Positions 14,436 through 55,691 of a stretch of DNA of 64,000 bases are shown piece by piece; the first letter of the stretch is position 1; every line of letters starts with the position of its first letter. The notes beneath the pieces are model-generated. The model saw only the letters and a list, made by a program, of their open reading frames with translations, did no database searches and was not told where the DNA came from. This DNA comes from Corythucha ciliata (Eukaryota > Arthropoda > Insecta > Hemiptera > Tingidae), in NCBI GenBank assembly GCA_038030265.1, contig CM075937.1, positions 23,932,001 through 23,996,000 on the forward strand, read 5' to 3'. The translations under genes were made by a program, and so were the position numbers.

Positions 14436-14635
14436 AAATGTTTATAGTAGGGGACCGCGATGCCTATCTCACACTCACCTCAACCCTTATAACCCCTGCA
14501 AATTTGCCGTCGACTTACCAAATACCCTGTATACATTAGAAACAAAATTGCTAAGCAGAGAAAATTAATCCAAGCTTAATCGCTTGATCTTGTTGGGGGG
14601 GGGGGGTGAATAAAATAGTTTTGATTCTGATAGCG

Positions 14636-15067
14636 AAACTCGAATCGTGTTGGGCTATGCCCTTCCATCGTCGTCCGGATAATATCAGTTTAATTAATTT
14701 ACTAATTAAAATGCCGGCGACAGATTTATTCATTATATCAATCTAACAACATCTAGATAAGATTAAATTCGGCGTGGTTTACCGATCAGGAGAAGCGCCT
14801 AGAGTTTCGAGAAACAATGGACCTAGGTGGGGTTCGGCTTAGCTTATCCCTCGGAGTACGACTCCCATAGGCGTCTCCGTGGCGCAAATGGCAGCGTGCT
14901 GGACTGGTAATCCAGAGGTTGCGGGTTCAAATCCCGCCGGAGGGCCATTTTTTCTCGAAACTCGAATCGTGTTGGGCTATGCCCTTCCATCGTCGTCCGG
15001 ATAATATCAGTTTAATTAATTTACTAATTAAAATGCCGGCGACAGATTTATTCATTATATCAATCTA
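14636..15067 (+). repeat. tRNA-Thr-like repeat unit, locus 1
   Basis: A downstream module (CGAAACTCGAATCGTGTTGG ... CATTATATCAATCTA) occurs at 14,636-14,747 and again at 14,957-15,067. Between them are about 125 bp of leader and a tRNA-like sequence. The same arrangement, also with a period of about 320 bp, recurs at 55,184-55,812. Confidence 0.75.
14873..14944 (+). tRNA. tRNA-Thr(GGT)-like sequence
   Basis: The 72-nt segment folds into a cloverleaf: D stem GCGC/GCGT, anticodon stem CTGGA/TCCAG around CTGGTAA (anticodon GGT), T stem GCGGG/CCCGC around TTCAAAT, and a mostly paired acceptor with a G-G mismatch at the end pair. An A-box-like TGGCGCAAATGG and B box GGTTCAAATCC are intact, and TTTTTT at 14,949 could end Pol III transcription. 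GGT is an unusual threonine anticodon for a eukaryotic nuclear tRNA. Since the unit is dispersed with fixed flanks, a SINE-like repeat is more likely than a working tRNA gene. Confidence 0.55.
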
Positions 15068-15288
15068 AGAAGAAATAACTCAAGAAGGAAGAGAGCTCCT
15101 TTTGGTAGGATGTCGGACGCTACAGTCCTACACGCGCTCTGACGCGGCCGAGAAAGTGGTGGGGTGGTAGGATGTAGGAAGGTCTGAACCGTCCGACCAT
15201 CCTACAGTAGGACTGTAGGATGCACCTGGCTAGCATCGGACCCCCGGGGGGTTGAGCTAGGGCAGATCGGATCGTGTGTAGGGGCCTT

Positions 15289-16799: not shown

Positions 16800-18239
16800 G
16801 TATAATGTTTTCCGTTTGAAAAGAAGAGAAAAACACTAGAGGGTTGAGTTGAGAGAGGGCTAAATGTGTTTAAAATATCCGCCGTTTTAATTGCTGCACC
16901 TCCCTGCAGCAGGAAGGTGCTGCAATTATTTAATCTGCCCGACATATTTACCTGCAGTCACTTTTTTCTTATTTAACAATATTCTACCCCTTGAACTAGC
17001 AATAACGCGCTGGTTTCTAATAAACGAATATTACAATTTGGATCTTTGACAGGTGTTTCCGTCCTAGGGAAGCGATCAAATTAGGTCACGTGCGTAATTG
17101 CAATCCCTTGGTAGACGACACTTGCATTATGAATCGAATGAATTTGAGCGTGAATTTATCAATTTGGAGAGCGATAATAATATCTAATATGTCTGTCACA
17201 CGTAGAAATGATGCTTTTAAGAAGGGCAGAGGATGCAGTCAAAGTGTAGTATAACGAGAGGGGTGTCCAGTCATTCACACCTGTCCGCCGGTTTTGCGGT
17301 TTCTCTCATCCTCAGGAACGGTCTACAAACCGTCGTTGTAAACTGTTTCCTTCACATTTATTAAAACTAGGCAAGTTGGTTGACGTGTTAAGGTTGCCGT
17401 GGAGGTGTGAGCGAGTTTTTTTTTAAAGGACACTGGAAGTGCTCCATTTTTGGTTTTTTTCGGTAAATGCATAGCGAGACTGAGACCCGACGCCAATCGT
17501 TTTGCTGTGCTGCACACTGTATTTTTAATAAGTTGTTCTCGACGGATGACGTGAAAGTCCGTTGAAGGAGAAGGGGAGGGGCAGTTTGTTGAGTTCACGA
17601 CCTTTTGTACCGAGGTGTAACCTTTGGTGTTCGGTGGTTATATATGAAACCCACCCTATTACACTTCTTATACGTTATGTATAACACGTTACGGGGCAGA
17701 GGGAGGGTTAAGTGATACACGGAGTTTAAAAAAACGGAAAGGGGACCACTTACTACACTCGTTTGTTTTGTGTGGTCGATTCGTAGTTGTAAAACATTTG
17801 GGGGTTGATTAATCGAGCAATTGGGTTGCGGGAAACTTTTGAAGCTTTTAGCACTAATCGCTTTTCGTTGGGCGATAGCTTCCTTCAAATGCGGCTTGAG
17901 GAGCCTAATCTCCTCCCACTAGACTTACCTCCGCGTCATTCAATTATCATTACATGTTCTTGAAAAATCGTGTAGGTACTTCACCTTTATCAGAATCGTT
18001 TAGTCCTTCATCTTCGCAGACCTTCCATTAAGGTTTTATGTGAAAGCCATGAAAATAACGTGTTTTGACGGTTTGAGCTGGCTTTAATCCAAAATTGTCC
18101 AACATTCTTGACCTAGAGACCTGTTATTATCACAAGGTCAAATAAAAATTTCCAGAACTAGCAAAATTTCTTTTCGTTTGTGGAATGCCGCCTTCGCTGC
18201 CACCCTTAAAATATTTTGTTTTTGTCTTCTCATTCTCAG
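16800..18239 (+). other. Neurexin intron 1
   Basis: A 1.44-kb intron joins two halves of LNS1, with donor GTATAA and acceptor TTCTCATTCTCAG. I see no element or exon inside it. Confidence 0.75.
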
Positions 18240-18591
18240 ATACAATTTAGGCGGCGGCGCGCAAATACTGACCGTCGGACGAGATTTAAACGACGGTCAC
18301 TGGCACAAGGTAGAGGTGCGTCGCAGCGGTGAACGAACCCGTTTGACAGTCGACGGTGAAAGTCAATGGCGAACTTCGCGCGGCAAAGAGTTCCATTTTG
18401 GTCGTCTCGCGTCCAATTCCGACGTCTACGTTGGCGGCATGCCTTCGTGGTACAGTACAAAACTGACTCTTCTCGCTCTTCCTAGCGTCATTTTCGAGCC
18501 TCGTTTCGGCGGTGCCATACGAAATCTCGTCTACGCTGACGACGAGTCGCCACTGCCACGCCGTCAGGAGATTCGCATGAAGGATCACAAG
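18240..18591 (+). CDS. Nrx-1: Neurexin exon 2: second half of LNS1
   Basis: The exon starts right after TTCTCAG and completes RYNLGGGAQILTVGRDLNDG with the LNS signature HWHKVEVRRSGERTRLTVDG. It continues with FHFGRLASNSDVYVGGMPSW and ends FGGAIRNLVYADDESPLPRR followed by QEIRMKDHK, the usual end of the LNS1 beta-sandwich. Length is 352 nt; it ends in phase 0 with donor GTAAGG. The segment before the EGF domain corresponds to the region where vertebrate splice site 1 lies, so small alternative exons in the very long following intron are possible. None could be identified by eye. Codons are richer in G and C than the introns around it. Confidence 0.93.
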
Positions 18592-21500
18592 GTAAGGAAT
18601 TCAGAATCCCATTGATTGATTATTAACATGCACATTTTCTAAACTCGGTAATAGCGCTTCATGAGTGGTAGTTTACCCCGTTTATGATTGATGGGAGGGG
18701 GTCTGATGTGCCAATCGTGTCGCTTTACAGTCCGAAATAAATAGAAATGAGCGTCTGAGGAATTTCGTTTGAACACCCTCGCTATTGAGTACCTATCAAA
18801 ATAAAATTAATATTCCGTAATTGAAATTATTGATTTTCAGTTCGTTAAGCAGCTCTAAAAACTTTAAAAGAGAGGGTTCTTAATTAATCCGCATACAAAT
18901 TAGTAATCCCACTTCTGGCCCCATTCCCAGGTTATGTATTATTCACAATGATCGCTTAATACTCCTTCTTTTCCCCCTTTTACAAAAATAACTCATTTTT
19001 CAACATGTTTGTCTTTCTCATGCATTTTAATTTCGTAAACTGATTTTTATCTGACCTTTTTTATGGTGTACAGAATGATGAAGGGGTGAGGGGGAGCTTT
19101 GTTATAATATCCTCAATGCTGGCGAGTTCCCTCTGTGTTTCATACTCATCGCTAGTGGTAACCCCGTATCCTCGGCTTAAGACAAATACGCGAAGGGGAC
19201 GATGTTCATGAGAGCTGGGAATGAGAGTATTTTTTATAGACTGACGACTTAATAGCATCAAGTCCTGTTTGCCGTCCATTCCATCCGCAATCCTCTCCTC
19301 CCCATTACAGATTGGTGCGGCTGAGGGAGCTTGAACCCGTCCTTTAACTCACTCAAGTTAGAGTTAGGAAGAGGAGTGAAATGAGAAAGCAAAGGTGTCT
19401 TTTTTCTGTGACATAATTATTCAAAAAATTGATCCTTTATGGAAGGTATTTTTACGTAAAACGGATATTCATTTTATGAATATCGGACTTCCAAGATTGA
19501 AACGAACTGGTTTTTAGGATTTGGTCAGACGACTCTGGCCGTTTGTATCAACGGAGTTGAAGTGCGGAATAATATTCTAGTGCATATTAAATAAATTAAA
19601 TTATCTCTTAGGTTTTTTAAAACACGCTATAACTGTTTTTGAGTTACAGTGGGGAAAGATTTGTGAAACATTTTCATGATGAGATTTTAAAATACCTAGG
19701 AACGTTTTGTTCCTACAAATGGAAACTTATTCACCTCGGAATTTCATACGCTCTCTATCTTTCTTCCCCCCCCCCCCGCTCGTTCTCTTACTCTCATCTC
19801 GGTAAAGGAACGCTGGAATCACGCGATCTTGTGACAGATGTCAGGGAAAACAGGATGGGCGGAGACCCTTCTTCCTCCTCTCTAAAAAATTGGATGTGAT
19901 TTATTCCATCCGAGCCATCACGAAATAGGGCCGTTATCTTTCACAGAAAAGTTTTTAACCGCGGTTGACGGTGATGTATTTGGACGGTGGTGCGGGCAGA
20001 GTTGGAAAGAAAAATTATTTTTATTATTATTACTCTTTTTATATTCCATATAACGTCTCATAGCGCAATAATACACTCGTATTGCATGCATATGTGTTAT
20101 GCATGCCCACTTATTCGCATGAGCATGCTTTTGTTGGCTTTTCATGAACATTTTTAGGTATATGTAGTAGGGAAAGGAATGCACAGGGTGAGAAAGGTTG
20201 GAGGGTGGGTTACAATAAATTTTCGTTTTAGAAAATAACTGGGGTTTTTGTTTATTTTGTTTCGCTGGAGTAGAAGCCAAGCACCACAATTATTGCACTT
20301 TGAATTTTCTCCGACAAATTGCGATTACCAACCACTTTACACAGCTTGCCAATAGAATCAGACACTTTGGGGCAGGCCCGTCCAACCTAGCACATCTCCC
20401 CATCACAAGTTTTTACAGCTTCCTCCTAGAGATCCATAAACCCAATGCTGGTCCCAAACTGGTCGAATGGGAAGAAGAAGAAGAAGAAGAAGAAAAAAAA
20501 GGTTCTTGGGAAGTGTTGAAATCGATAAAAACCTTGGGCGTAAACTCTCTTTTTGACCGCTTTAAGAATCAAATTAACAAGAATGATTAAAAACTTGATA
20601 AGTGAGGGGGCGAAGCGATTTAATTATGCCCTTACTGTCCACGCCCCCTTTGTATGAATAATTCACGCTATGGGATATCGTTTGAAGAGGAGGAGGGAAA
20701 AGAGAGACTAAAAAACTTGAGAGTTGTTGACCAGAAAATGTCAGAAAACAGCTATATGTGTTATAGAACAAACGGACTTTTTTTCTTCGCTTCGATTTGA
20801 CCCTACAGTTTCCGAGCAAACAAAGATTTGTTATCCTACGGCGACAGGGCACGTTTTGGTGGAAAAAGACGCACACACTCACAAAAAAAGACGGAAAATT
20901 CACTCTTTTCTCTCTTCCCTATTTTCACAGCGTGGGATGTTTTTGACAGAAAAAGACGCAATCGTAGTTTTCTTCATTCTGAAATATTTCCATGGATACT
21001 TCTAACCCCCACCCTCACCAAGCCATTAAATTTAACCTCCGTTTACGAGATGACCGTGACTTCAGGAAAGTTTCTTGTTTTTTTCTTTATTATGACCATG
21101 CGATAAGCCCCCCCCCCCCTGGGTGGCTCCTTCCTCTTGGAGATTTTTATCCCCCTGAAAATTTACGAACAAAAGATACAGAAAATTCTCTGTACGCATT
21201 TGTTTCCTTAAAAACATGCCATTGGGGATTATACTTGTCTTAGAGTAAGAATTTGCCTACCAGCCACCTCATCTCATTTCCCTCTGGGCCCTCTACATAT
21301 ATTTGGAGTGGAACACGGCTAAAATGATCCCACTAAATTCATCGATTTATAATTTAAGTAGAACAATCCAATTCTACCTCATGGGGGGGGGGGGCATTAT
21401 ATAATTTTCAACCGCCGTAAAGACTTACATGAGCTTATTTAGAAACTTATTGATGAATTCAATTTGAAATCAATTACACTAAAGTGCCCGTCATTCACGG

Positions 21501-25903: not shown

Positions 25904-25907
25904 TTAA

Positions 25908-26291
25908 GGGGGGGTTTCAGGCGGGTTCCCTCGACACGTCCCCAGTCGCCCCTCGCCTAAAAAGCGCACATAAATTTTGGCTCCATTTCTGCACCAATAT
26001 TCGATTTCAAATTCTAATTTTAATCTTCAGGAAGTTCTACAGTGACGTTAGATCTTGCTTTTTCAAATTTCATCCCTAAAATAACCCCAAAGCACTTCAC
26101 AATTCGAATGTGTTTTAAGGTAATTTCAGGGATGAAATTTGGAAAAGCAGGATCTAACGTCACTGTAGAACTTCGTGAAGTTTAAAATAAGACTTTGAAA
26201 TCGAATATTGATGCGAATATTGAATTCATGTGCGAAGTTTCGGCGAGGGGTGACTAGGAACGGGTCGAGGAAACCCGCCTGAAACCCCCCC
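25908..26291. mobile_element. TTAA-flanked palindromic MITE
   Basis: The element starts GGGGGGGTTTCAGGCGGGTT and ends with its inverse. Arms of about 170 bp (to about 26,080 and from about 26,125) carry shared text such as GTTCTACAGTGACGTTAGAT on opposite strands. TTAA stands on both sides (25,904-25,907 and 26,292-26,295), the target of piggyBac-type transposases. The end is G-rich, unlike the CCC start of known piggyBac elements, so the superfamily is uncertain. Confidence 0.65.
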
Positions 26292-26295
26292 TTAA

Positions 26296-30193: not shown

Positions 30194-30205
30194 TGATTAG
30201 GTTTT
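30194..30205. repeat. Left 12-bp target-site duplication of the Penelope pair
   Basis: TGATTAGGTTTT occurs here directly before the minus-oriented element and again at 37,000-37,011 directly after the plus-oriented one. Confidence 0.85.
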
Positions 30206-30281
30206 TAAGAGTTTTTCGTGAATGTTATTAATATTAAGTAATTAAAGATTATTTGAGTACAAACATTCAAATTTTATTAAT

Positions 30282-30325
30282 GGCCGACTAGTTTCGGAGT
30301 AGACTGCACTCCATTTTCGAGGCCG
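30282..30325 (-). ncRNA. Hammerhead-ribozyme-like fold, outer end of the minus copy
   Basis: This is the inverse of the 44-nt block described at 36,911-36,954, in the 3' part of the minus-oriented element. Confidence 0.4.
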
Positions 30326-30505
30326 AAACAACTAAAAGGAGACATCACAACAATCAACAAGAATTCTCAACAATTATTAAAAATCTAGCTTAACGTTTAC
30401 TCACATCTCTTTGACAAACGTCTCACGCAAAATTCCCAAAAATCCCGGCGACGGATGTACAAGGAAACTTGTTTCTGTACTAAATGATTTAAACCCTTTT
30501 ATCTT

Positions 30506-33124
30506 TCAAGACAGAGAGCCACACCCCCTCAACCCACTCCCATATCTGCTTTTTCCACCACTTCTCTTATACATTGCCAAAACGTTCTTATACGGTTCTA
30601 CTCCAACACTATCCAACTGAAAATTGACAGTTTTTTCCCCCAAATTTATATGTAATTTTTCCAAGACTTTTAATTTTTCGCAGTTGTTCTCCCGATCCAA
30701 TATACTAACGTCTTTAAAATTAAAAATATGCCCCGTTTTATTATGATGTTCACTAAGCCCAGTATTATTTTTTCTATTTTTAGTATCACAAACGTGTTGA
30801 GCTATTCTATTTTTTAACTTTTGCGTAGTCATCCCTATGTAGCAACCTTCACACCCCCCACAATTAATTTTATATACCACATTATTCTTTTGAGTAATAT
30901 TATCTTTGTCTTTAAAAGCTGGAAAAATAGTCTTAAGTGAGTTATTCAACTTGAAAGCTATATCTATATTATTGACTGAACAAAATTCTTTTAATAAGTT
31001 TTTAATCGTATACGAAATACCCTCTATAAACGTAATACCCATTTTACATCTTAAATTTGTATTCATAACCTCACTTTCAATATTATTAACCGACTTTAAT
31101 TTGTTAATTTCATTTTTAACAAGCTTTTTCACTAGTCCCGGAGGGTAATCGTTCTTTATAAACATATTTTCCACCTTTTTTATGTTATCTTGATGATAAC
31201 AATCTTCACTTAACAATAACATTTTTCTTGTTTGGTTCTTAACAATATTAACTTTCATGTGGTACGGGTGGTTCGAGTAATAATTCAATATTCTGTTTGA
31301 TGCAGTTTCTTTTTTGTACCAATTCGTTTTAATCTCACCATTTTCTAATCTAGTGAGCGTCATATCTAAAAAATTTAATTTATTGTTAATTTCACGTTCA
31401 GCCGTAAATTTAATATTAGGGTGAGCACAATTCAACTCGTTAATTAAGGGTATTATATGTTCTTTTTTAACGCAAGCTATGGAATCGTCAACATAAATTT
31501 TTAAAAAATCAACTTTTAACTTACTTTTCAGTAAAACGTCATTAATAAGCTTATCTACGTAAATACCAGCTAAAAGAGGCGATAGACAGCCTCCCATGCT
31601 TAAACCATTTTTTTGTTCATATATAGTTCCATTAAAAATAAAATAATTATTAAAAACACAGAAACGTAGTATATTAAAAAATAACTCTTTTGGAATTTTA
31701 GTATGCTGTTTTATGATTGACCATTTTGACTCGATGTATGCTAAAACCTCCGTTACCGGAATGCTAGGGAACATACTTTCAACATCTAAACTAACAAGCT
31801 CATCCCCTTCATCGACGTGTTTTCCTTTTAGAAAATTGCAAATCTCTTCTGAGTTTTTAATTGAAAAATTATGTTGGTTATTTAAGCACTGAAGGTGTTT
31901 TATAATAAATTTTGCCAAATTGTAATTTGGATTTGAAAACGTACAAACAATTGGTCTGAAAGCTTTTTTCTTTACTTTATACACCCCATACGCTTTTGGG
32001 ATAATTGCTGTATACGTGGTAAGCTTCCTCTTTTCCGCTTTATCAATTACTTTTATCTCTTCTAATTTACGAACAAGTTCATTATTTTTCCTAATTAGCG
32101 TTTCAGTGGGATCTTTATCAAGTATTTTATAAGCGTCAACATTTTTAAAAATCTCTTCCATCTTAACATTATAAAAATTCTTGTCAATAACTACTGTTTG
32201 TCTTGTTTTATCGGATTCTACTGCGATTATAGTATTGTTTTCTTTGAAAAATTTTTTAACCATTGAAGCATTCTTTAATATTGCTCTATTTTTTACATCT
32301 GTGCTTCCCGGTATCATAGGTACATTTTTTGCACAATTTTGTTTTATCAAATGGTTTGTAAGGGCATTAATTATTTTACATCGGCTTTCTGCAATAAGGT
32401 TTTTACATGTTCCTTCTTCAACTACGTTAAATACATTTTCGACATCCGCTATCAACTTTGGGACGTCTTTGAAATTATTTTGATATGGCAAATTAAATTT
32501 GGGCCCCATTTTAAGACAAAACATTACTTCTGGGGGGATAACTGTGTTAGTTAAGTTTATCACCCTTTCCACCCTTTCCGCATCCCCTACAAAGCTTTCT
32601 GGAAACTCTGTATCACTCACTCTTTGAAAGGCGAAGTGATTAATTTCAAACGATTGAGATTTTGTTTTCAGCCTTTCAAATTTTCCTTTCAATCTTTCTT
32701 TTTCTTTCAGTTTTACGGCAGATGCGACATTGGTGAAAAAGCTAACAACGTCGTTATACAGAATTGCTGAAACCTTCATTTTTAAACTTTTAAAATTTTC
32801 TTCCCCCACTTTTTTAAGCCTTTTAATTACTACATGCTTGTCTTTTATTTCTAAATTTAATAATTTGTTCGCATGAATAACATTATATTTGTTCAGATTC
32901 CTATACAAGCTGGGACTAATTAATTGTGACTTGTTGCTAAGTTTCAAAATATTCGCGATGTGTTTTGGAAAAACCTGAGAACTTCTACATTTCATTAGGA
33001 AAGTGAGTTGGCACTCTTGTTTAGTTTTACGTATTGTTGTTCTTTCAATGTTATTGAAAACCTTGAACTCCTCTAGGGACATCTCCTCCTTTATTTTACG
33101 GATAAGGAGAGCTTTTTCACTCAT
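30506..33124 (-). CDS. Penelope-like reverse transcriptase/GIY-YIG endonuclease, minus copy
   Basis: The 872-residue protein would copy the element RNA into DNA at a nick made by its own endonuclease. The reverse transcriptase lies at about residues 365-640: PKAYGVYKVKKKAFRP, then DVESMFPSIPV (about 446), NGLSMGGCLSPLLAGIY (about 506) and the catalytic YVDDSIA (544). The carboxy end carries a Cys-rich linker INCGGCEGC running into a GIY-YIG-type nuclease, CYIGMTTQKLKNRIAQH, followed by SEHHNKTGHIFNF. This order (RT, then GIY-YIG) defines the endonuclease-containing Penelope-like elements. The start is MSEKALLIRK, with 5' untranslated sequence and a pseudo-LTR upstream. No frameshift or stop is present, so it could be active. 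The roughly 360-residue amino-terminal part is Lys-rich and I recognise no domain in it. Confidence 0.93.
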   Translation of the reverse strand: MSEKALLIRKIKEEMSLEEFKVFNNIERTTIRKTKQECQLTFLMKCRSSQVFPKHIANILKLSNKSQLISPSLYRNLNKYNVIHANKLLNLEIKDKHVVIKRLKKVGEENFKSLKMKVSAILYNDVVSFFTNVASAVKLKEKERLKGKFERLKTKSQSFEINHFAFQRVSDTEFPESFVGDAERVERVINLTNTVIPPEVMFCLKMGPKFNLPYQNNFKDVPKLIADVENVFNVVEEGTCKNLIAESRCKIINALTNHLIKQNCAKNVPMIPGSTDVKNRAILKNASMVKKFFKENNTIIAVESDKTRQTVVIDKNFYNVKMEEIFKNVDAYKILDKDPTETLIRKNNELVRKLEEIKVIDKAEKRKLTTYTAIIPKAYGVYKVKKKAFRPIVCTFSNPNYNLAKFIIKHLQCLNNQHNFSIKNSEEICNFLKGKHVDEGDELVSLDVESMFPSIPVTEVLAYIESKWSIIKQHTKIPKELFFNILRFCVFNNYFIFNGTIYEQKNGLSMGGCLSPLLAGIYVDKLINDVLLKSKLKVDFLKIYVDDSIACVKKEHIIPLINELNCAHPNIKFTAEREINNKLNFLDMTLTRLENGEIKTNWYKKETASNRILNYYSNHPYHMKVNIVKNQTRKMLLLSEDCYHQDNIKKVENMFIKNDYPPGLVKKLVKNEINKLKSVNNIESEVMNTNLRCKMGITFIEGISYTIKNLLKEFCSVNNIDIAFKLNNSLKTIFPAFKDKDNITQKNNVVYKINCGGCEGCYIGMTTQKLKNRIAQHVCDTKNRKNNTGLSEHHNKTGHIFNFKDVSILDRENNCEKLKVLEKLHINLGEKTVNFQLDSVGVEPYKNVLAMYKRSGGKSRYGSGLRGCGSLS

Positions 33125-33217
33125 ATTCTAATTGACAAATTTTTAAGAGTTTCGTGAATGTTATTAATATTAAGTAATTAAAGATTATTTGAGTACAAAC
33201 ATTCAAATTTTATTAAT

Positions 33218-33261
33218 GGCCGACTAGTTTCGGAGTAGACTGCACTCCATTTTCGAGGCCG
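33218..33261 (-). ncRNA. Hammerhead-ribozyme-like fold, pseudo-LTR of the minus element
   Basis: Inverse copy of the 44-nt block at 36,911-36,954, placed upstream of the minus ORF. A transcript of this element would carry the fold at both ends. Confidence 0.4.
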
Positions 33262-33441
33262 AAACAACTAAAAGGAGACATCACAACAATCAACAAGAAT
33301 TCTCAACAATTATTAAAAATCTAGCTTAACGTTTACTCACATCTCTTTGACAAACGTCTCACGCAAAATTCCCAAAAATCCCGGCGACGGATGTACAAGG
33401 AAACTTGTTTCTGTACTAAATGATTTAAACCCTTTTATCTT

Positions 33442-33774
33442 TCAAGACAGAGAGCCACACCCCCTCAACCCACTCCCATATCTGCTTTTTCCACCACTTC
33501 TCTTATACATTGCCAAAACGTTCTTATACGGTTCTACTCCAACACTATCCAACTGAAAATTGACAGTTTTTTCCCCCAAATTTATATGTAATTTTTCCAA
33601 GACTTTTAATTTTCCGCAGTTGTTCTCCCGATCCAATATACTAACGTCTTTAAAATTAAAAATATGCCCCGTTTTATTATGATGTTCACTAAGCCCAGTA
33701 TTATTTTTTCTATTTTTAGTATCACAAACGTGTTGAGCTATTCTATTTTTTAACTTTTGCGTAGTCATCCCTAT
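33442..33774 (-). pseudogene. Carboxy-terminal fragment of the Penelope ORF
   Basis: It encodes the GIY-YIG end from about MTTQKLKNRI to the normal stop, with Glu to Gly in the ENNCGKL segment relative to the full copies. It lacks the GCYIG part and the whole reverse transcriptase, so it has no function as a protein. Confidence 0.8.
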
Positions 33775-33783
33775 CGTAGTGTA

Positions 33784-34111
33784 CTGTCTTGAAAGATAAA
33801 AGGGTTTAAATCATTTAGTACAGAAACAAGTTTCCTTGTACATCCGTCGCCGGGATTTTTGGGAATTTTGCGTGAGACGTTTGTCAAAGAGATGTGAGTA
33901 AACGTTAAGCTAGATTTTTAATAATTGTTGAGAATTCTTGTTGATTGTTGTGATGTCTCCTTTTAGTTGTTTCGGCCTCGAAAATGGAGTGCAGTCTACT
34001 CCGAAACTAGTCGGCCATTAATAAAATTTGAATGTTTGTACTCAAATAATCTTTAATTACTTAATATTAATAACATTCACGAAAAACTCTTAAAAATTTG
34101 TCAATTAGAAT
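33784..34111 (+). mobile_element. Short pseudo-LTR and 5' leader of the plus element
   Basis: From CTGTCTTGAAAG this repeats the untranslated 3' part of the plus copy (36,722-36,999) and adds TTAATATTAATAACATTCAC and AATTTGTCAATTAGAAT up to the ATG at 34,112. Unlike the minus side, it contains almost none of the ORF end. Confidence 0.8.
33973..34016 (+). ncRNA. Hammerhead-ribozyme-like fold, pseudo-LTR of the plus element
   Basis: Same 44-nt block as at 36,911-36,954, about 100 nt upstream of the plus ORF. Confidence 0.4.
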
Positions 34112-36730
34112 ATGAGTGAAAAAGCTCTCCTTATCCGTAAAATAAAGGAGGAGATGTCCCTAGAGGAGTTCAAGGTTTTCAATAACATTGAAAGAACAAC
34201 AATACGTAAAACTAAACAAGAGTGCCAACTCACTTTCCTAATGAAATGTAGAAGTTCTCAGGTTTTTCCAAAACACATCGCGAATATTTTGAAACTTAGC
34301 AACAAGTCACAATTAATTAGTCCCAGCTTGTATAGGAATCTGAACAAATATAATGTTATTCATGCGAACAAATTATTAAATTTAGAAATAAAAGACAAGC
34401 ACGTAGTAATTAAAAGGCTTAAAAAAGTGGGGGAAGAAAATTTTAAAAGTTTAAAAATGAAGGTTTCAGCAATTCTGTATAACGACGTTGTTAGCTTTTT
34501 CACCAATGTCGCATCTGCCGTAAAACTGAAAGAAAAAGAAAGATTGAAAGGAAAATTTGAAAGGCTGAAAACAAAATCTCAATCGTTTGAAATTAATCAC
34601 TTCGCCTTTCAAAGAGTGAGTGATACAGAGTTTCCAGAAAGCTTTGTAGGGGATGCGGAAAGGGTGGAAAGGGTGATAAACTTAACTAACACAGTTATCC
34701 CCCCAGAAGTAATGTTTTGTCTTAAAATGGGGCCCAAATTTAATTTGCCATATCAAAATAATTTCAAAGACGTCCCAAAGTTGATAGCGGATGTCGAAAA
34801 TGTATTTAACGTAGTTGAAGAAGGAACATGTAAAAACCTTATTGCAGAAAGCCGATGTAAAATAATTAATGCCCTTACAAACCATTTGATAAAACAAAAT
34901 TGTGCAAAAAATGTACCTATGATACCGGGAAGCACAGATGTAAAAAATAGAGCAATATTAAAGAATGCTTCAATGGTTAAAAAATTTTTCAAAGAAAACA
35001 ATACTATAATCGCAGTAGAATCCGATAAAACAAGACAAACAGTAGTTATTGACAAGAATTTTTATAATGTTAAGATGGAAGAGATTTTTAAAAATGTTGA
35101 CGCTTATAAAATACTTGATAAAGATCCCACTGAAACGCTAATTAGGAAAAATAATGAACTTGTTCGTAAATTAGAAGAGATAAAAGTAATTGATAAAGCG
35201 GAAAAGAGGAAGCTTACCACGTATACAGCAATTATCCCAAAAGCGTATGGGGTGTATAAAGTAAAGAAAAAAGCTTTCAGACCAATTGTTTGTACGTTTT
35301 CAAATCCAAATTACAATTTGGCAAAATTTATTATAAAACACCTTCAGTGCTTAAATAACCAACATAATTTTTCAATTAAAAACTCAGAAGAGATTTGCAA
35401 TTTTCTAAAAGGAAAACACGTCGATGAAGGGGATGAGCTTGTTAGTTTAGATGTTGAAAGTATGTTCCCTAGCATTCCGGTAACGGAGGTTTTAGCATAC
35501 ATCGAGTCAAAATGGTCAATCATAAAACAGCATACTAAAATTCCAAAAGAGTTATTTTTTAATATACTACGTTTCTGTGTTTTTAATAATTATTTTATTT
35601 TTAATGGAACTATATATGAACAAAAAAATGGTTTAAGCATGGGAGGCTGTCTATCGCCTCTTTTAGCTGGTATTTACGTAGATAAGCTTATTAATGACGT
35701 TTTACTGAAAAGTAAGTTAAAAGTTGATTTTTTAAAAATTTATGTTGACGATTCCATAGCTTGCGTTAAAAAAGAACATATAATACCCTTAATTAACGAG
35801 TTGAATTGTGCTCACCCTAATATTAAATTTACGGCTGAACGTGAAATTAACAATAAATTAAATTTTTTAGATATGACGCTCACTAGATTAGAAAATGGTG
35901 AGATTAAAACGAATTGGTACAAAAAAGAAACTGCATCAAACAGAATATTGAATTATTACTCGAACCACCCGTACCACATGAAAGTTAATATTGTTAAGAA
36001 CCAAACAAGAAAAATGTTATTGTTAAGTGAAGATTGTTATCATCAAGATAACATAAAAAAGGTGGAAAATATGTTTATAAAGAACGATTACCCTCCGGGA
36101 CTAGTGAAAAAGCTTGTTAAAAATGAAATTAACAAATTAAAGTCGGTTAATAATATTGAAAGTGAGGTTATGAATACAAATTTAAGATGTAAAATGGGTA
36201 TTACGTTTATAGAGGGTATTTCGTATACGATTAAAAACTTATTAAAAGAATTTTGTTCAGTCAATAATATAGATATAGCTTTCAAGTTGAATAACTCACT
36301 TAAGACTATTTTTCCAGCTTTTAAAGACAAAGATAATATTACTCAAAAGAATAATGTGGTATATAAAATTAATTGTGGGGGGTGTGAAGGTTGCTACATA
36401 GGGATGACTACGCAAAAGTTAAAAAATAGAATAGCTCAACACGTTTGTGATACTAAAAATAGAAAAAATAATACTGGGCTTAGTGAACATCATAATAAAA
36501 CGGGGCATATTTTTAATTTTAAAGACGTTAGTATATTGGATCGGGAGAACAACTGCGAAAAATTAAAAGTCTTGGAAAAATTACATATAAATTTGGGGGA
36601 AAAAACTGTCAATTTTCAGTTGGATAGTGTTGGAGTAGAACCGTATAAGAACGTTTTGGCAATGTATAAGAGAAGTGGTGGAAAAAGCAGATATGGGAGT
36701 GGGTTGAGGGGGTGTGGCTCTCTGTCTTGA
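34112..36730 (+). CDS. Penelope-like reverse transcriptase/GIY-YIG endonuclease, plus copy
   Basis: This is the mirror of the minus ORF and, as far as I can compare, gives the same 872 residues from MSEKALLIRK to the carboxy end SGLRGCGSLS. The YVDD codons start at 35,741, and the GIY-YIG region at about 36,385. The ORF is intact and ends just before CTTGAAAGATAAAAG, the start of the pseudo-LTR repeat. It is transcribed in the same sense as neurexin, so it could in principle be copied as part of the neurexin pre-mRNA. Identity with the minus copy means either a very recent origin, gene conversion or an assembly duplication. Confidence 0.93.
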   Translation: MSEKALLIRKIKEEMSLEEFKVFNNIERTTIRKTKQECQLTFLMKCRSSQVFPKHIANILKLSNKSQLISPSLYRNLNKYNVIHANKLLNLEIKDKHVVIKRLKKVGEENFKSLKMKVSAILYNDVVSFFTNVASAVKLKEKERLKGKFERLKTKSQSFEINHFAFQRVSDTEFPESFVGDAERVERVINLTNTVIPPEVMFCLKMGPKFNLPYQNNFKDVPKLIADVENVFNVVEEGTCKNLIAESRCKIINALTNHLIKQNCAKNVPMIPGSTDVKNRAILKNASMVKKFFKENNTIIAVESDKTRQTVVIDKNFYNVKMEEIFKNVDAYKILDKDPTETLIRKNNELVRKLEEIKVIDKAEKRKLTTYTAIIPKAYGVYKVKKKAFRPIVCTFSNPNYNLAKFIIKHLQCLNNQHNFSIKNSEEICNFLKGKHVDEGDELVSLDVESMFPSIPVTEVLAYIESKWSIIKQHTKIPKELFFNILRFCVFNNYFIFNGTIYEQKNGLSMGGCLSPLLAGIYVDKLINDVLLKSKLKVDFLKIYVDDSIACVKKEHIIPLINELNCAHPNIKFTAEREINNKLNFLDMTLTRLENGEIKTNWYKKETASNRILNYYSNHPYHMKVNIVKNQTRKMLLLSEDCYHQDNIKKVENMFIKNDYPPGLVKKLVKNEINKLKSVNNIESEVMNTNLRCKMGITFIEGISYTIKNLLKEFCSVNNIDIAFKLNNSLKTIFPAFKDKDNITQKNNVVYKINCGGCEGCYIGMTTQKLKNRIAQHVCDTKNRKNNTGLSEHHNKTGHIFNFKDVSILDRENNCEKLKVLEKLHINLGEKTVNFQLDSVGVEPYKNVLAMYKRSGGKSRYGSGLRGCGSLS

Positions 36731-36910
36731 AAGATAAAAGGGTTTAAATCATTTAGTACAGAAACAAGTTTCCTTGTACATCCGTCGCCGGGATTTTTGG
36801 GAATTTTGCGTGAGACGTTTGTCAAAGAGATGTGAGTAAACGTTAAGCTAGATTTTTAATAATTGTTGAGAATTCTTGTTGATTGTTGTGATGTCTCCTT
36901 TTAGTTGTTT

Positions 36911-36954
36911 CGGCCTCGAAAATGGAGTGCAGTCTACTCCGAAACTAGTCGGCC
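36911..36954 (+). ncRNA. Hammerhead-ribozyme-like fold at the 3' end of the plus element
   Basis: In order: CGGCC, then UCGAAAAU, a 5-bp helix GGAGU/ACUCC with a 7-nt loop, GAAA, C-UA-G, UC, and GGCC. This is the order of a type I hammerhead: helix I GGCC/GGCC, helix II, the conserved GAAA, a two-base-pair helix III, and cleavage after the C at 36,950. The box that should read CUGANGA is UCGAAAAU instead, so the key G of the core is missing. Penelope-like elements are known to carry minimal hammerheads in their pseudo-LTRs. This one is either decayed or a variant. Confidence 0.45.
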
Positions 36955-36999
36955 ATTAATAAAATTTGAATGTTTGTACTCAAATAATCTTTAATTACT

Positions 37000-37011
37000 T
37001 GATTAGGTTTT
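37000..37011. repeat. Right 12-bp target-site duplication of the Penelope pair
   Basis: TGATTAGGTTTT repeats the sequence at 30,194-30,205 and directly follows ...TTAATTACT of the plus element. Confidence 0.85.
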
Positions 37012-38555
37012 ATTTTTCGTTGTTTTATAAGCTTGTTCAAAAGAGATTGACTTAGTTGGAAACACGAGAAATGACTGGGGCTTCCTTTCGTCTATCTTAT
37101 ATACTTAGTACTTAGTAAATCTAAAATACTACGACGGTAATCTTCTTATATTGTAGTCGAGAAGAAGAGGGATAAAAATGAAATAATACGGGGAACCGTT
37201 GCCCAACATTTTGCATTGAAAAAATAAAAGACGAATTTCCGGGGAATTAGCGATAACAGCAATTCATAAGGATTGACACTTATCGCCCGGAAACTGAAAC
37301 TGAAACTGCTGGATTGGCATCCATTCACTGTTCTCATGCAGGAGCAATTATCGAAGAACCAACTAGGTTTAATCAAAATCCCATACACCTGCTGTAATAT
37401 CAAATTTGTGCTCCTTTTCATCTTTCTCCTACTAGGTCATCATTAAACGTCGTTTTTCGCGGATCAGGACTCATGTTTTTCTGGAAAGATAAACAGTGCG
37501 TTGATTGTGGGGGGAGGGGCGAGTGAGAAGGCATCGAGGAGGAATGGAAAGGAGAGAGAAATGCGATTATCCTCTGCTTGTCAGGGGGTTGTTGTGGTAG
37601 GGGCGTGGAGGTGCGTTCGGTAGTTAATGACTTTGTGTGTTGGAAGAAAATTCGCTCAAGATCTGATTCGGCTTTTCCTCTCACACTTGCCTTGTTCTTT
37701 CTTGGTGATTGATGAACCATGCCTCATTCCACCTTCTCCTTTCCATGGGTGAAGTTTAAGTACTCGCGGTAATTACGCGCGTAGGCGTTCGAAGAATTTC
37801 GAAAAAGGCGATGGCTCACAAGTAAACACTTCATTAGCGAGAGTTTATGTAAGTTCGAAAAACGGTTTACCTCCTGAATATTCAAATTAATTCGTAAGCG
37901 ACACTTTTAAAATCTAATTAATCCCATTGAAGTGCTGCGCGATCCTATTCTGCGAAGACAGAAACCCCCGGGTGAACAAATTGAGTTAGAATTTGAATGC
38001 TCTTCAGAGAAAATGGCGTTGATTGATCTGCTGTGCTATTGAAGAGGCATGGGGGAATAGTTGTCGTTGGCGTTTGAATCGATCGAGAGGGGGGATGGTA
38101 CTTCAACAAACGCCACCTAAATTAACCATTGGGTTTTGTGGGAAGGAACAAAAGCGTGAGTGCAAATATAGGCTCTAGTGAACGATAGTATCTTCATTCA
38201 AGCTTATATTTTCACGACACTCCCTTAAATAATGAAGCGCGGTTATAAAAACTATCGTTTTGAAAAAGTTATCGTTGGGCAGGGTTGAGGGTTGGGCCTG
38301 GAATGATTTTTTGTTTAAATGAGGCTTTTTTAAGTCAATGTTTTAATTTGCTGGGCTTTAGAAGTTTTTTCCCATACTTCATTGCCAGCCCTCTTTTTTA
38401 TTCTTTTAATTTCCCTTATGATGCACTTTTCCTCCTCACCATCAGGCTACTCCCTCTTTTTTATCAATTTATTTCATTACCACCGCTGAGATTCGAACGT
38501 TTCTCAATTGATGATCTAATAAATAGATACGCATATAAAACTAGGTAGTTTCATA
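37012..38555 (+). other. Neurexin intron 2, between the Penelope pair and a mariner-type element
   Basis: No exon or repeat end was recognised here. Confidence 0.45.
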
Positions 38556-38557
38556 TA

Positions 38558-40082
38558 CAGGGTGGTCGGTTTTGAGATGCAAAAAAAAAATTGGGTAATA
38601 GTACACCGAAAATGGAATAAAAAAGTCTTATTCGGATAGTGGCCTATCTCTTTTTGTTTTCGAGTAATAATTTTTTTAGTGATTTTTAGGCGCAACTGTA
38701 TTTTTCGCCGAAAAACTGTTATTTCTCAGCATCTACTTCACGTTTTTCCAAAAGTGATGGCAGTTTCGTAATCTACAGAAAATTTTCTACGGGATGAATG
38801 CAAAATCAATATTCTAAATTGTCATAAACGCCTGAAAACGTTACGTTTTCGTTGCGTTAATGCAAAAAAACCAAGAATTTGACTTCACAAAACAATTTAC
38901 TGTGTCACCAAAAATGTCTTCACACGTTGTCAAACGACATAAAAACTTCTCCGTTTTCCCAGCTTTCCAACGGTGTACTCGAAAGTGGAATTATCTCCCT
39001 CCTTCGACGAGAAAATTCGAAAAGAAGCGAAAAAGTCATACATTTTGGGCTAAAAATGTGAATAATAAGAGGTGCAAAAATTCATTTTTTTGGCTCTCTT
39101 TCTTGAGAAATCCAAGCTCTGGCACTATAAAAATTAAAATGTATTGCATTTGAAGAATAAACAACAAACAAACAAATTAATAAAATTGACGAAGAGGTGG
39201 GCGAATTTAGTGCGTCTGCTGGTTTTTTATGGGTCGGAGAGACCGATTAATAGGCCCACATTTCTTTGAAGGAACGGGGCAAGGCTACCTGCATTTCCTG
39301 CAAGTCGAATTGCCACGTCTTCTTGACGGAATGGACCCAGAGCTGAGGGAACAAATTATTTTCCAGCAAGACGGTGATTTCGGTCTCCGACGATCCCAGC
39401 CCAGACCCCATAAAAATCCAACAGACGCCCTAAATTCGCACACCTCTTCGTCCATTTTATTAATTTGTTTGTTTGTTGTTTATTCTTCAAATGCAATACA
39501 TTTTAATTTTTATAGTGCCAGAGCTTGGATTTCTCAAGAAAGAGAGCCAAACAATTGATATTTCGCACCTGTTATTATTGACATTTTTAGCCCAAAATGT
39601 ATGACTTTTTCGCTTCTTTTCGAATTTTCTCGTCGAAGGAGGGAGATAATTCCACTTTCGAGTACACCGTTGGAAAGCTGGGAAAACGGAGAAGTTTTTA
39701 TGTCGTTTGACAACGTGTGAAGACATTTTTGGTGACACAGTAAATTGTTTTGTGAAGTCAAATTCTTGGTTTTTTTGCATTAACGCAACGAAAACGTTAC
39801 GTTTTTAGGCGTTTATGACAATTTAGAATATTGATTTTGCATTCATCCCGTAGAAAATTTTCTGTAGATTACGAAACTGCCATCACTTTTGGAAAAACGT
39901 GAAGTAGAAGCTGAGAAATAACAGTTTTTCGGCGAAAAATACAGTTGCGCCTAAAAATCACTAAAAAAATCATTACTCGAAAGCAAAAAGAGATAGGCCA
40001 CTATCCGAATAGGACTTTTTTATCCCATTTTTGGTGTACTATTACCCAATTTTTTTTTTGCATCTCAAAACCGACCACCCTG
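38558..40082. mobile_element. Mariner-type element with about 680-bp inverted arms
   Basis: The ends CAGGGTGGTCGGTTTTGAGA and the inverse lie between TA dinucleotides (38,556-38,557 and 40,083-40,084). The arms (38,558 to about 39,237 and about 39,403 to 40,082) are highly similar throughout, leaving about 165 bp of unique centre. That centre holds a transposase fragment. The element looks like a foldback-type derivative in which one half of a Tc1/mariner relative was duplicated in inverse orientation. Confidence 0.8.
39229..39380 (+). pseudogene. Tc1/mariner (IS630-type) transposase fragment
   Basis: The frame reads RDRLIGPHFFEGTGQGYLHF then LQVELPRLLDGMD and IIFQQDGD. In insect mariner-type transposases, IGPxFF.G.L.G..YL.FL..ELP.LL is followed by the QQDGA motif with the second catalytic Asp. 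Only about 50 residues survive, beside the arm boundary, and no other part of the protein is found in the element. Confidence 0.75.
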
Positions 40083-40223
40083 TATTGAGGTTTGGTAAAC
40101 CAGACCTCAATATGAAGGCAATGCGAATTTCGATGTTTAATTTCTTTTTATTCATCCAATCAGTCTTAAAAGTATGTACCCGAATTGTTTTGCCCATGAT
40201 TTCCCGGCCCTTCGCTGGATATA

Positions 40224-47838: not shown

Positions 47839-48901
47839 CAGACCTAATGCTATGCAATTTGAAGAGTTTAAAACAGCATCTACCGATTAATTAGAGGTAG
47901 GGAATATGGTTAAAAACTGGGTTTTCACTCTCACGCCCATTGGGCTTACAGCAACAAACTTTCAAGAGGATGTCATGTCAGTCCGATATCTCCCTTACGA
48001 CCTCATACTTTCAGCTACCAATGCTACTCGGTCTTCTTGGTCGTATTATCCCGGATACTGAGCCGATTGTGTAGCTGGTACACCGCTTCCCAGGGGGCAG
48101 AGGTGCTACTGCACTAAGGTCCTCGCTTCTGGCTCTGTAGCCGACTCGACATACCAAGAGTCGGGTTGGAAAATCGTTGAGCCGTGTCCTCGATATTTAA
48201 TTTAGCTATCCCCGTTGCAAGAATGAGAGAATGACGACCGCTACACTTGGCGAATATTCGTATTTCCCGTTCTAATCGGAGCACCCGAACACCGAATATT
48301 CGTGATTTGGCGAATAGCGAGCACCCATCCACACTATCGCATATTTGGGAAACATTTTGCTCGTTAATTGCCAAGTATCATATGTGTGGAAGAAGTTATA
48401 CAGGGTGTTAACGTTAAGGTCGCACCACCGGCCAGGGTTAGATTCTGCAACTCATTTGCGGCAAAAGTTGTCCTCCGCAAAAAAAATTGTCATCCCGCAC
48501 GAAGACCGACTTTTTTAACTTTTAAGATTTTTTTCGAGTTATAGACATTGCGTTACTAAAACGACTGTAACTCGCTCATTTCTGGCCGAAAATCAAATCT
48601 GAATACACCGTTGGAAAGAGCGTTAAATTTACCATCTTCCCAGTGCAAAATATTATTTTTAATGTAGGATTCAGGGGACGAAAAATGAGCCCGAGTAGTA
48701 AAATGTGAGAAATTACGAAAATTTTCAGAATTTTCAAACGTTTTCAACTCCGACTGAATCTATCGGTTAATCGTACACTGCAATCTTGAAAGTTGGTGTA
48801 GTGCCTCAGCTTTCTTTAGGTCTAGTCATTTTTTTAACTAAAAAATCGAATAGGTGAGAAAACCGCGTCTGATTGAAAAAATAGGTGTTTTTTTTATCTT
48901 A

Positions 48902-49650: not shown

Positions 49651-50532
49651 AATCTCGTACTCTGACTACTCGGAGCGCTTTACTGTAACTGTAAACGCCG
49701 AGCATGATTACCTTGGAGCATAGTATATCAAATAGGTAGAAAGCCTTTCTAGAGGATCTGCTTGAGGATTAGCGTATTCGGCGATCAAATCAGGCAGAAC
49801 CATTGGGTTTTAGAACGGATAGTGGGGACCAACACGAAGGACACACCGAAAATATGCCAAAGTGAATAAAATAGCTCTTGCTTGTCTCTTCTAGATGTTA
49901 CCATCAGACGGTCTATTCCCGAATTGCGTCCCTTAGTAGAAACGGGATCCTTTTTAAAATATTAAACGTCGTATTACCCCTATTCCCCTTGCTCAACTAA
50001 TTCATGAGCATCGTTAGCACCACCATTCGATTCAGCCACAGAAAAAACAAACATAAAACAGGCGTATCCCACCCCTTATTCCACCAAACTGTGAAGATTT
50101 GGCAGTCATTAAATAATTGAGTAAGATAAAAAAAACACCTATTTTTTCAATCAGACGCGGTTTTCTCACCTATTCGATTTTTTAATTAAAAAAATGACTA
50201 GACCTAAAGAAAGCTGAGGTTCTACACCAACTTTCAAGATTGCAGTGTACGATTAACCGACAGATTCAGTCGGAGTTGAAAACGTGTGAAAATTCTGCAA
50301 ATTTTCGTAATTTCTCACATTTTACTACTCGGGCTCATTTTTCGTCCCCTGAATCCTACATTTAAAATAATTTTTTGCACTGGGTAGATGGTAAATTTAA
50401 CGCTCTTTCCAACGGTGTATTCAGATTTAATTTTTGGCCAGAAATAAGCGAGTTACAGTCGTTTTAGTAACGCAATGTCTATAACACGGAAAAAATCTTA
50501 AAAGTGAAAAAAGTCGGACTTCGTGCGGGGTG

Positions 50533-50577
<45 letters not shown>

Positions 50578-52035: not shown

Positions 52036-52835
52036 CCCTGCGGAACTCGCGACCTGTGAGGTCAGCTCATTTTTAATGTTTTTGTCACCCTCTCTCGCGC
52101 TTTTGGTTGAGAGCGGTGAGGGTTCGCTGTTGCCTTCCTAACACTTCTATTAATGACCTGAGTTTGTTATTAATGTTTTCCGCGGAGGCCTCTAATTATC
52201 AAAGCCAATAAGACCTGGTGGGTCGGGTGCGCGTTCTCAGGTAATTCTGTCACGTTGTTGAGCAAATGGCATTTTTGTGAGAGTTGGTGTATTATTTGTA
52301 TTTATTGATTGATGTGCAAGCTGCCATAATTTGGAGGATATAATCAAAAAACAGAAAAATATCTAAAATGTCGAGGTTTTTGGAGCACCTCAAAACCTTT
52401 TTTGATTTCCAGACCTCACAGGTCCTTGCGCGCTCCCTAGGGTAAACTCTAATACTTCTTGTTAGCACAGGTCATTTGAATCTGCTAACTTGGTTTTACT
52501 GCACAAATGGAATCCATCTCTGGACAGCATCGCAAAAATTCAGAGATGTTTAATTTTTTGACCTCCGATGCCATAAATTACTGACCTAATGTTCATCTGG
52601 GTACCAGTTTTTGTTTAGGCCACAATTTTAAATTCGCGGATAATTTTTATTTGTACGATATTTTTTCGAACAAAACTCTCAATTATGAAAAGTTAATTGA
52701 TAATTTACTCCTTATTGTTAATTATCTCTTGGTTTTTTGGCCTTTGGGCCAAAAAAAAGTTTGGGTTTTTTGGTTTTTTATGGAAATCACTTTTTTGATT
52801 TCCAGACCTCACAGGTCCTTGCGCGCTCCCTATGG
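52036..52835. mobile_element. piggyBac-like TTAA-flanked element with duplicated right end
   Basis: After TTAA (52,032) the left end reads CCCTGCGGAACTCGCGACCT followed by GTGAGGTC. Inverse right ends GACCTCACAGGTCCTTGCGC occur twice, at about 52,411 and 52,805; the second is followed by GGTTAAC. TTAA targets and CCCT termini fit piggyBac-type elements. There is no transposase. Confidence 0.6.
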
Positions 52836-52968
52836 TTAACTCTAATACTTCTTGACTGCCGGGCGCTGCCGGGCAAAGGAAATTATGAAGCTTCAAACTT
52901 ACTCTATGCTTTGGAAAAACGAGAAAAAGTGTGGAACAAGTACACTTCCCGTGTAAATAGTCTTACAT

Positions 52969-53514: not shown

Positions 53515-53745
53515 ATGAACAGATACAGGTCACATCAAGACTTGATTGTCATCCTTTTGCAGCACAATTCGAGCAAATGAAAACTAATTAAAAAATAAAA
53601 AACCACTATCTGGAGCAATCAACCACATTACTATTCACAATTTGTATGGGAAACCTATGACACCGAAACCTTCAATCTCCCAGGGACTCCTTCTCTTAAA
53701 TCCGCCTGAGCGCGCTCCGGTCCACCTGTCCGCCCTCAATGGGCA
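53515..53745. mobile_element. Right end of the GGGCGGGCAGG family
   Basis: From GATACAGGTCACATCAAGAC to CCACCTGTCCGCCCTCAAT it follows the right arm of the 2121-3397 element at high similarity. The corresponding left arm is absent. Confidence 0.7.
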
Positions 53746-55165: not shown

Positions 55166-55296
55166 CTACTAAATTTCAATTAATAAATTAATTAAACTGA
55201 TGTTATCCGGACGACGATGGAAGGGCAGTTTCGAGAAACAATGGACCTGGGTGGGGTTCGGCTTAGCTTATCCCTTGGAGTACGACTCCCAAAGGT

Positions 55297-55368
55297 GTCT
55301 CCGTGGCGCAATTGGCAGCGTGCTGAACTGGTAATCCAGAGGTTGCGAGTTCAAATCCCGCCGGGGAG
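55297..55368 (+). tRNA. tRNA-Thr(GGT)-like sequence, mismatched copy
   Basis: Same fold as at 14,873, but with a mismatch in the anticodon stem (CTGAA/TCCAG) and in the T stem (GCGAG/CCCGC). TTTTT follows at about 55,373. The stem damage argues against function as a tRNA. Confidence 0.45.
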
Positions 55369-55619
55369 CCATTTTTCTCGAAACTCGAATGGTGTTGGGC
55401 TATGCCCCTTCATCGTCGTCCGGATAACATCAGTTTATTTAATTTATTAATTAAAAATACCGGCGACGGAATTATTCATTATATCCATCTAACAACATCT
55501 AGATAAGATAAAATTCGGCGTGGTTTACCGATCAGGAGAAACGCCTAGAGTTTCGAGAAACAATGGACCTGGGGTGGGGTTCGGCTTAGCGTATCTCTCG
55601 GAGTACGATTCCCAAACGC

Positions 55620-55691
55620 GTCTCCGTGGCGCAATTGGCAGTGTGCTGGACTGGTAATCCAGAGGTAGCGGGTTCAAATCCCGCCGGGGAG
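55620..55691 (+). tRNA. tRNA-Thr(GGT)-like sequence, better preserved copy
   Basis: All stems pair except the outermost acceptor pair (G-G). The D loop AATTGGCA and T loop TTCAAAT are canonical, and TTTTTT follows two bases later. Anticodon GGT. Confidence 0.5.

What the first reader, a model, noticed from the sequence alone, without database searches (positions are those of the whole stretch)
30194..37011. Two full-length Penelope-like elements in head-to-head orientation share one target-site duplication
TGATTAGGTTTT occurs only at the outer edges (30,194-30,205 and 37,000-37,011), and each intact 872-codon ORF has its own pseudo-LTR. The pair therefore entered as one 6.8-kb unit, not as two independent insertions. 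Penelope-like elements are known for tandem and inverted arrangements; a symmetric pair with both ORFs intact suggests second-strand priming or template switching during one integration.
Basis: partly seen in the sequence, partly recalled or inferred. Interest (0 to 1): 0.78.

Follow-up and report, generated by a model that had tools for sequence, protein, structure and literature searches.

The report
Head-to-head double Penelope retrotransposon insertion
Two near-identical, apparently intact copies of a Penelope-type jumping gene sit head to head inside one shared duplicated target site in an animal genome, which suggests that both ends of a single DNA break were extended by copying the element's RNA.

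Summary
An exact 12-bp repeat (30194-30205, 37000-37011) brackets a 6.8-kb insert with two 872-aa Penelope-type ORFs head to head; the proteins are identical and the genes differ by one silent base. The left unit carries an extra 5'-truncated tandem copy (33451-33779), the right unit lacks the last 31 nt at its outer end, and a short filler lies at the centre. One shared TSD, a partial tandem, a head-to-head inverted partner and an optional 31-bp "tail" at one inverted end are published Penelope anatomy (PMC3846280). There the inverted partner is typically a short pseudo-LTR; here it is full length with an intact ORF. In vitro, a Penelope-group protein cuts and extends both strands (PMC11167929). 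Snap-back self-priming fits less well but is not excluded. Sibling copies, empty alleles and reads could not be examined: the genome search did not complete (11 tries). A new variant of a known kind.

The parts
30194..30205 (+). left copy of the 12-bp target-site duplication TGATTAGGTTTT
   Evidence: 4 nt (TTTT/AAAA) can also be read as the end of the element
30206..30236 (-). 31-nt tail at the outer 3' end of unit A, absent from unit B
   Evidence: 31 positions present in A and missing in B in the alignment; ambiguous by 1 nt at one end and 4 nt at the other
30206..30513 (-). pseudo-LTR L1 (3' pseudo-LTR of unit A, tail included)
30506..33124 (-). ORF A, 872 aa, reverse transcriptase plus GIY-YIG-like endonuclease
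   Evidence: protein identical to ORF B
33140..33450 (-). pseudo-LTR L2 (5' pseudo-LTR of unit A), A-run of 3 instead of 5
33451..33779 (-). third copy, 5'-truncated, holding only the end of the ORF; partial tandem with unit A
   Evidence: one substitution (33614) against both full copies and a 1-nt insertion near 33775
33780..33783 (.). filler at the head-to-head junction (up to 9 nt, 33775-33783, if the match to A is taken without gaps)
   Evidence: CGTAGTGTA occurs once in the window
33784..34096 (+). pseudo-LTR L3 (5' pseudo-LTR of unit B)
34112..36730 (+). ORF B, 872 aa; RVT_1 at residues 386-557, GIY-YIG-like region near residues 750-830
36722..36999 (+). pseudo-LTR L4 (3' pseudo-LTR of unit B), without the tail
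37000..37011 (+). right copy of the target-site duplication

Best explanation
One insertion of an endonuclease-bearing Penelope-like retrotransposon, primed from both sides of the target. SHOWN: one 12-bp TSD around two outward-facing element 3' ends; head-to-head 5' ends with a short filler; two nearly identical full-length units; a 31-nt tail at one end only. INFERRED: the element's protein made a staggered break with 12-nt 3' overhangs. The left 3' end (...GGTTTT) primed unit A at the distal (tail) start site, where the element ends in AAAAA. The right 3' end (...CTAATCA) primed unit B at a start site 31 nt further in. Both reverse transcripts ran through the ORF into the 5' pseudo-LTR, A's also into an upstream tandem copy. 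The two cDNA 5' ends were then joined head to head with a few filler bases. Since both cDNAs cover the whole element, two RNA templates, or one used twice, are needed. In the typical insertion one side stops early and leaves only a short inverted pseudo-LTR; here neither did.
For: Single TSD at the outer edges and none at the centre. Both element 3' ends abut target DNA. The tail is at one end only and is 31 nt long, the length given for an A. vaga Penelope tail and within the 30-40 bp given for tails in PMC11167929. That paper reports cleavage and extension of both target strands, two internal start sites that match the tail boundaries, and a predicted dimer. Units A and B differ at 1 of 2,888 positions after the ATG. 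B keeps the five-A run of L1, not the three-A run of its would-be snap-back template L2. No palindrome at the junction beyond chance.
Against: One locus only; that the no-tail end is a recurrent start site of this family is not shown. In PMC11167929 start sites did not differ between the two strands and were not homologous to the cut DNA, whereas the left join here shares 4 nt with the element end. In the published cases the tail lies inside the start of the ORF; here it ends 15 nt before the ATG. Use of two templates is inferred. The window holds several other long inverted repeats, so other palindrome-forming processes may act in this genome. An assembly error was not excluded.
Confidence: 0.6

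Rival explanations
1. Snap-back (self-primed) synthesis in one integration: a cDNA, or an antisense template as proposed in PMC3846280, folded back at its end and copied itself, giving the inverted partner.
For: Proposed for head-to-head Penelope inverted repeats in A. vaga, whose junctions contain palindromes. Would explain near-identity of the units and one TSD.
Against: Longest stem centred at the junction is 4 bp, reached or exceeded by 392 of 500 random places. The cDNA end matches the needed primer at 3 of the last 10 bases (no control was run, about 2.5 expected at one in four). B lacks the tail and the three-A run that a copy of A would carry; a later mutation or deletion could explain either.
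Confidence: 0.2
2. Assembly or library artefact: a single element (or a normal one with a short inverted pseudo-LTR) was turned into a false inverted pair.
For: Inverted repeats are a known source of false joins and fold-back reads (titles and abstracts in the listing); no reads could be inspected.
Against: A fold-back copies flanks too and is symmetric; here both flanks are unique and carry the TSD, and tail, third copy, filler, A-run and one silent base differ between the arms.
Confidence: 0.1
3. A usual insert (full copy plus short inverted pseudo-LTR, one TSD) was enlarged later by recombination or break-induced copying between the inverted pseudo-LTRs.
For: Gives the same TSD and near-identical arms; the pseudo-LTRs are inverted repeats of about 300 nt.
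Against: Needs a second event; does not by itself explain the filler or the extra truncated copy at the centre.
Confidence: 0.08
4. Two independent insertions of the same element side by side.
For: Two complete units, each with its own pseudo-LTRs.
Against: Each would need its own TSD; no junctional repeat of 6 nt or more links the centre to either edge.
Confidence: 0.02

Closest known systems
Canonical Penelope inserts of Adineta vaga, such as Pen2a_Av (PMC3846280)
   Same: ORF of similar size (842 aa) between direct pseudo-LTRs, head-to-head inverted partner, one TSD around the whole insert, 31-bp tail optional at one inverted end, partial tandems
   Different: There the inverted partner described for Pen2a is a pseudo-LTR of 181 bp; here it is a complete unit with an intact ORF. 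TSD 12 bp here, 9 bp there. There the pseudo-LTR and tail reach into the ORF start; here they end before the ATG.
Poseidon of Anolis carolinensis, PAc (PMC11167929)
   Same: RT plus C-terminal GIY-YIG endonuclease; tandem or partial-tandem units; two reverse-transcription start sites a tail's length apart; both target strands cut and extended
   Different: PAc has a hammerhead motif and starts inside the ORF; no hammerhead was found here. No head-to-head full-length pair is described in the parts I read (1-3 of 4).
Twin priming in LINE-1 (recalled; papers with the term were only seen in the listing)
   Same: Both target ends prime reverse transcription and give inverted segments under one TSD
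   Different: In L1 the two segments are taken to come from different parts of one RNA; here both cover the whole element.

Membership tests
Endonuclease-bearing Penelope-like elements | Reverse transcriptase related to telomerase RT | tested here: met
   RVT_1 above cut-off. Predicted model (mean pLDDT 79.0, pTM 0.62): the 12 best PDB matches are telomerases, E 2.7e-10 to 6.3e-07, but TM-scores are low (TMq 0.28-0.31), and other RTs and viral polymerases follow. By sequence profile, TERT ranks 4th and 5th of 21, after a maturase RT, an RT named only RNA-directed DNA polymerase, and a retron RT. No hit by the single sequence.
Endonuclease-bearing Penelope-like elements | GIY-YIG endonuclease domain in the same ORF, C-terminal in canonical elements | tested here: met
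   Weakly: Pfam GIY-YIG E 0.0067, 17.2 bits, below the cut-off of 22.6, none with the full protein at E 0.001. Y751, C755, C758, Y762, G764, R773, H777, H793, H799 and E822 are nearly invariant in an alignment with 9 of 16 homologues, one of which lacks this region.
Endonuclease-bearing Penelope-like elements | Pseudo-LTRs made by full or partial tandem units | tested here: met
   Direct repeats L1/L2 and L3/L4; truncated tandem copy 33451-33779
Endonuclease-bearing Penelope-like elements | Inverted partner and one TSD around the whole insert (typical, not universal) | tested here: met
Endonuclease-bearing Penelope-like elements | Optional tail of about 30-40 bp at one end (not defining) | tested here: met
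   31 nt, 30206-30236
Endonuclease-bearing Penelope-like elements | Hammerhead ribozyme motif in the pseudo-LTR (reported in PLEs, not defining) | tested here: not met
   No Rfam hammerhead in the window at gathering score or in 33770-34130 and 33780-34600 at E up to 5 and 10; no core-motif match in unit B by pattern. A degenerate form is not excluded.
Endonuclease-bearing Penelope-like elements | AT-rich target | tested here: inconclusive
   66% AT over the 12-mer and 10 nt each side, against roughly 58-61% in most 2-kb blocks outside the element
Endonuclease-bearing Penelope-like elements | Clade within the group (Penelope/Poseidon, Neptune and others; names partly recalled) | not tested
   No named reference elements were on hand; the 16 homologues found are 23-33% identical and only two carry a name of any kind
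Twin-primed L1-type insertion | The two inverted segments derive from different parts of one RNA | tested here: not met
   Both segments cover the whole element, so only the priming from two ends is alike

The most novel reading that the evidence does not exclude
The locus records symmetric, two-ended target-primed reverse transcription by a Penelope-like element: a dimeric protein carries two RNAs, each target strand primes one full-length cDNA at its own start site (tail and no-tail), and the usual short inverted pseudo-LTR is simply the case in which one of the two cDNAs stops early. One mechanism would then account for tail, inverted repeat and single TSD together.
Probability: 0.45. Interest if true: 0.65.

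Novelty: new variant of a known kind. Interest (0 to 1): 0.42.

Why it matters
How Penelope-like elements integrate is still open: PMC11167929 leaves the steps after priming to be validated, and PMC3846280 proposed self-priming for the inverted repeats. A full-length, near-identical head-to-head pair under one TSD, with the tail on one end only, gives different predictions for two-ended priming and for snap-back, which can be tested by listing ends and junctions of sibling copies. It also offers two apparently intact ORFs of what looks like a young insertion.

Tried and rejected
Independent insertions: rejected, no TSD at the centre. Hammerhead ribozyme: none found. Palindrome at the centre: 4-bp stem, reached by 392 of 500 random places. 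RNA structure of the pseudo-LTR: no stronger than shuffles, z -0.41, 31 of 100 shuffles fold as well. Relatives with genomic context: genome contigs gave 169 pattern matches and viral contigs 14, none confirmed as a relative; one scan of each. Further copies in the window: none outside the insert. Other copies in the host genome: the genome search 'own' was sent 11 times and never answered, so copy number, recurrent ends and empty sites are untested. Literature on a full-length inverted pair: ten searches; no listed title or abstract start named one, but most listed papers were not opened and four central papers are not held, so absence from print is not claimed. Passages of PMC8504770 and PMC12910113 and of PMC6431247 added nothing on such pairs. 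A comparison of the third copy with unit A was one base out of register; one search repeats it correctly (1 difference).

Full report
OBSERVATION. The 12-mer TGATTAGGTTTT stands at 30194-30205 and 37000-37011 and nowhere else in the window on either strand, one mismatch allowed. Two hits alone would be unremarkable (21 of 100 shuffles had at least 2), but both lie exactly at the ends of the insert. Random pairs of places in the window, with 0-3 nt of slack on each side, share a 12-mer in 4 of 200,000 trials. Between them lie two ORFs of 872 aa, 30506-33124 on the minus strand and 34112-36730 on the plus strand, with identical proteins. From the ATG to the end of unit B the two units differ at 1 of 2,888 positions, a silent change in codon 97. 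The '100%' given for the arms is rounded.

ANATOMY. Read on its own strand, unit A (minus) is: 5'-truncated copy (33779 down to 33451), pseudo-LTR L2 (33450-33140), ORF, pseudo-LTR L1 (30513-30206), TSD. Unit B (plus) is: pseudo-LTR L3 (33784-34096), ORF, pseudo-LTR L4 (36722-36999), TSD. The junction is head to head, with a filler of 4 nt (33780-33783), or 9 nt if A's match is taken without gaps. The 'symmetric pair' thus misses four asymmetries: the third, truncated copy; the filler; an A-run of three in L2 against five in L1 and L3; and a 31-nt tail (30206-30236) present at A's outer end and missing at B's. The truncated copy differs from both full copies at one base, 33614, besides a 1-nt insertion near its end.

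WHAT THE PROTEIN IS. Pfam gives RVT_1 at residues 386-557. The C-terminal part matches GIY-YIG only below the cut-off (17.2 against 22.6 bits, E 0.0067). Residues expected of such an endonuclease (expectation recalled) are nearly invariant in an alignment with 9 of the 16 homologues found. The 16 are 23-33% identical; the search scored only the 7,993 candidates sharing most words. A predicted model (mean pLDDT 79.0, pTM 0.62) has telomerases as its twelve best PDB matches, with low TM-scores (TMq about 0.3), followed by other RTs and viral polymerases. By profile search of PDB sequences TERT ranks 4th and 5th of 21, after three other RTs; the single sequence had no hit. With the pseudo-LTR structure this fits an endonuclease-bearing Penelope-like element. 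No hammerhead ribozyme was found.

WHAT IS KNOWN. In Adineta vaga (PMC3846280; sections 6 and 11 and search passages seen) the typical Penelope insert has direct pseudo-LTRs, an adjacent inverted pseudo-LTR, a TSD around the whole (9 bp in the example) and a 31-bp tail optionally at one of the inverted pseudo-LTRs. Partial tandems occur, head-to-head is called the most frequent inverted arrangement, and some inserts have no TSD. The authors favoured self-priming, on an antisense template. In PMC11167929 (parts 1-3 of 4 seen) a purified Penelope-group protein cuts and extends both target strands; reverse transcription starts at two internal sites that correspond to the tail boundaries, with no evident difference between strands and no homology to the cut DNA; a dimer is predicted. 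PMC8969392 (passages) describes the pseudo-LTR as a 5'-truncated tandem second copy and mentions inverted pseudo-LTRs and short 3' extensions.

INTERPRETATION. The window shows this anatomy with one change: the inverted partner is complete. One event is the simplest reading, since neither unit has a TSD of its own. At the left, the TTTT 3' end of the target coincides with the AAAAA end of the element. At the right, the element ends 31 nt earlier, with about 1 nt shared. Two outward-facing 3' ends, at the tail and no-tail positions, are what priming from both strands would leave. Because both cDNAs cover the whole element, two RNA templates, or one used twice, are needed; that step is inferred. 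Snap-back from one cDNA predicts a palindrome at the centre, a copied tail and a copied three-A run, and none is seen. Each sign could be undone by a later mutation or deletion, so I put two-ended priming at 0.6 and snap-back at 0.2.

AGAINST. The published tails lie within the start of the ORF, whereas this one ends 15 nt before the ATG. The published start sites do not depend on strand or on homology to the target, so the 4-nt overlap at the left may be chance. The window has several other long inverted repeats, so this genome may form them in other ways.

LIMITS. One locus, no reads, no sibling copies: the host genome could not be searched (11 unanswered calls, listed in Tried and rejected). 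The host is taken to be an animal from a laminin-G exon at 18178-18615 (likeness to neurexin is my recall); the species is unknown. Near-identity of the arms may reflect youth or gene conversion between them. Whether a full-length head-to-head pair is already in print could not be settled, because four central papers are not held.

VERDICT. Real, and rightly recognised as a Penelope-like pair under one TSD, but not symmetric and not a new kind. It is the long end of a known arrangement, useful because its asymmetries discriminate between models of integration.

Noticed in passing
38555-39233 with 39407-40085; 56054-56485 with 56887-57318; 48479-48901 with 50122-50544; also 2119-3398 and 25904-26295: Other long inverted repeats (arms up to 679 nt, 86-97% complementary), possibly fold-back or MITE-like elements; the region is rich in them.
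   Followed up: no
14634-15071 and 55250-55818: Repeats of about 322-324 nt spacing that contain tRNA-Thr (GGT) genes or tRNA-like parts at 14873, 55297 and 55620; a small tRNA cluster unit or tRNA-derived repeat.
   Followed up: no
18178-18615: Exon-like ORF with a laminin-G domain (Laminin_G_2, E 1.1e-18); neurexin-like by recall. The insert may lie in an intron or beside this gene.
   Followed up: partly
52397-52461 and 52790-52854: 65-nt direct repeat at 97% identity, 393 nt apart.
   Followed up: no
3179-3398 and 53521-53740: 220-nt repeat at 94% identity, 50 kb apart, overlapping the inverted-repeat arms near 2.1-3.4 kb; a dispersed repeat family.
   Followed up: no
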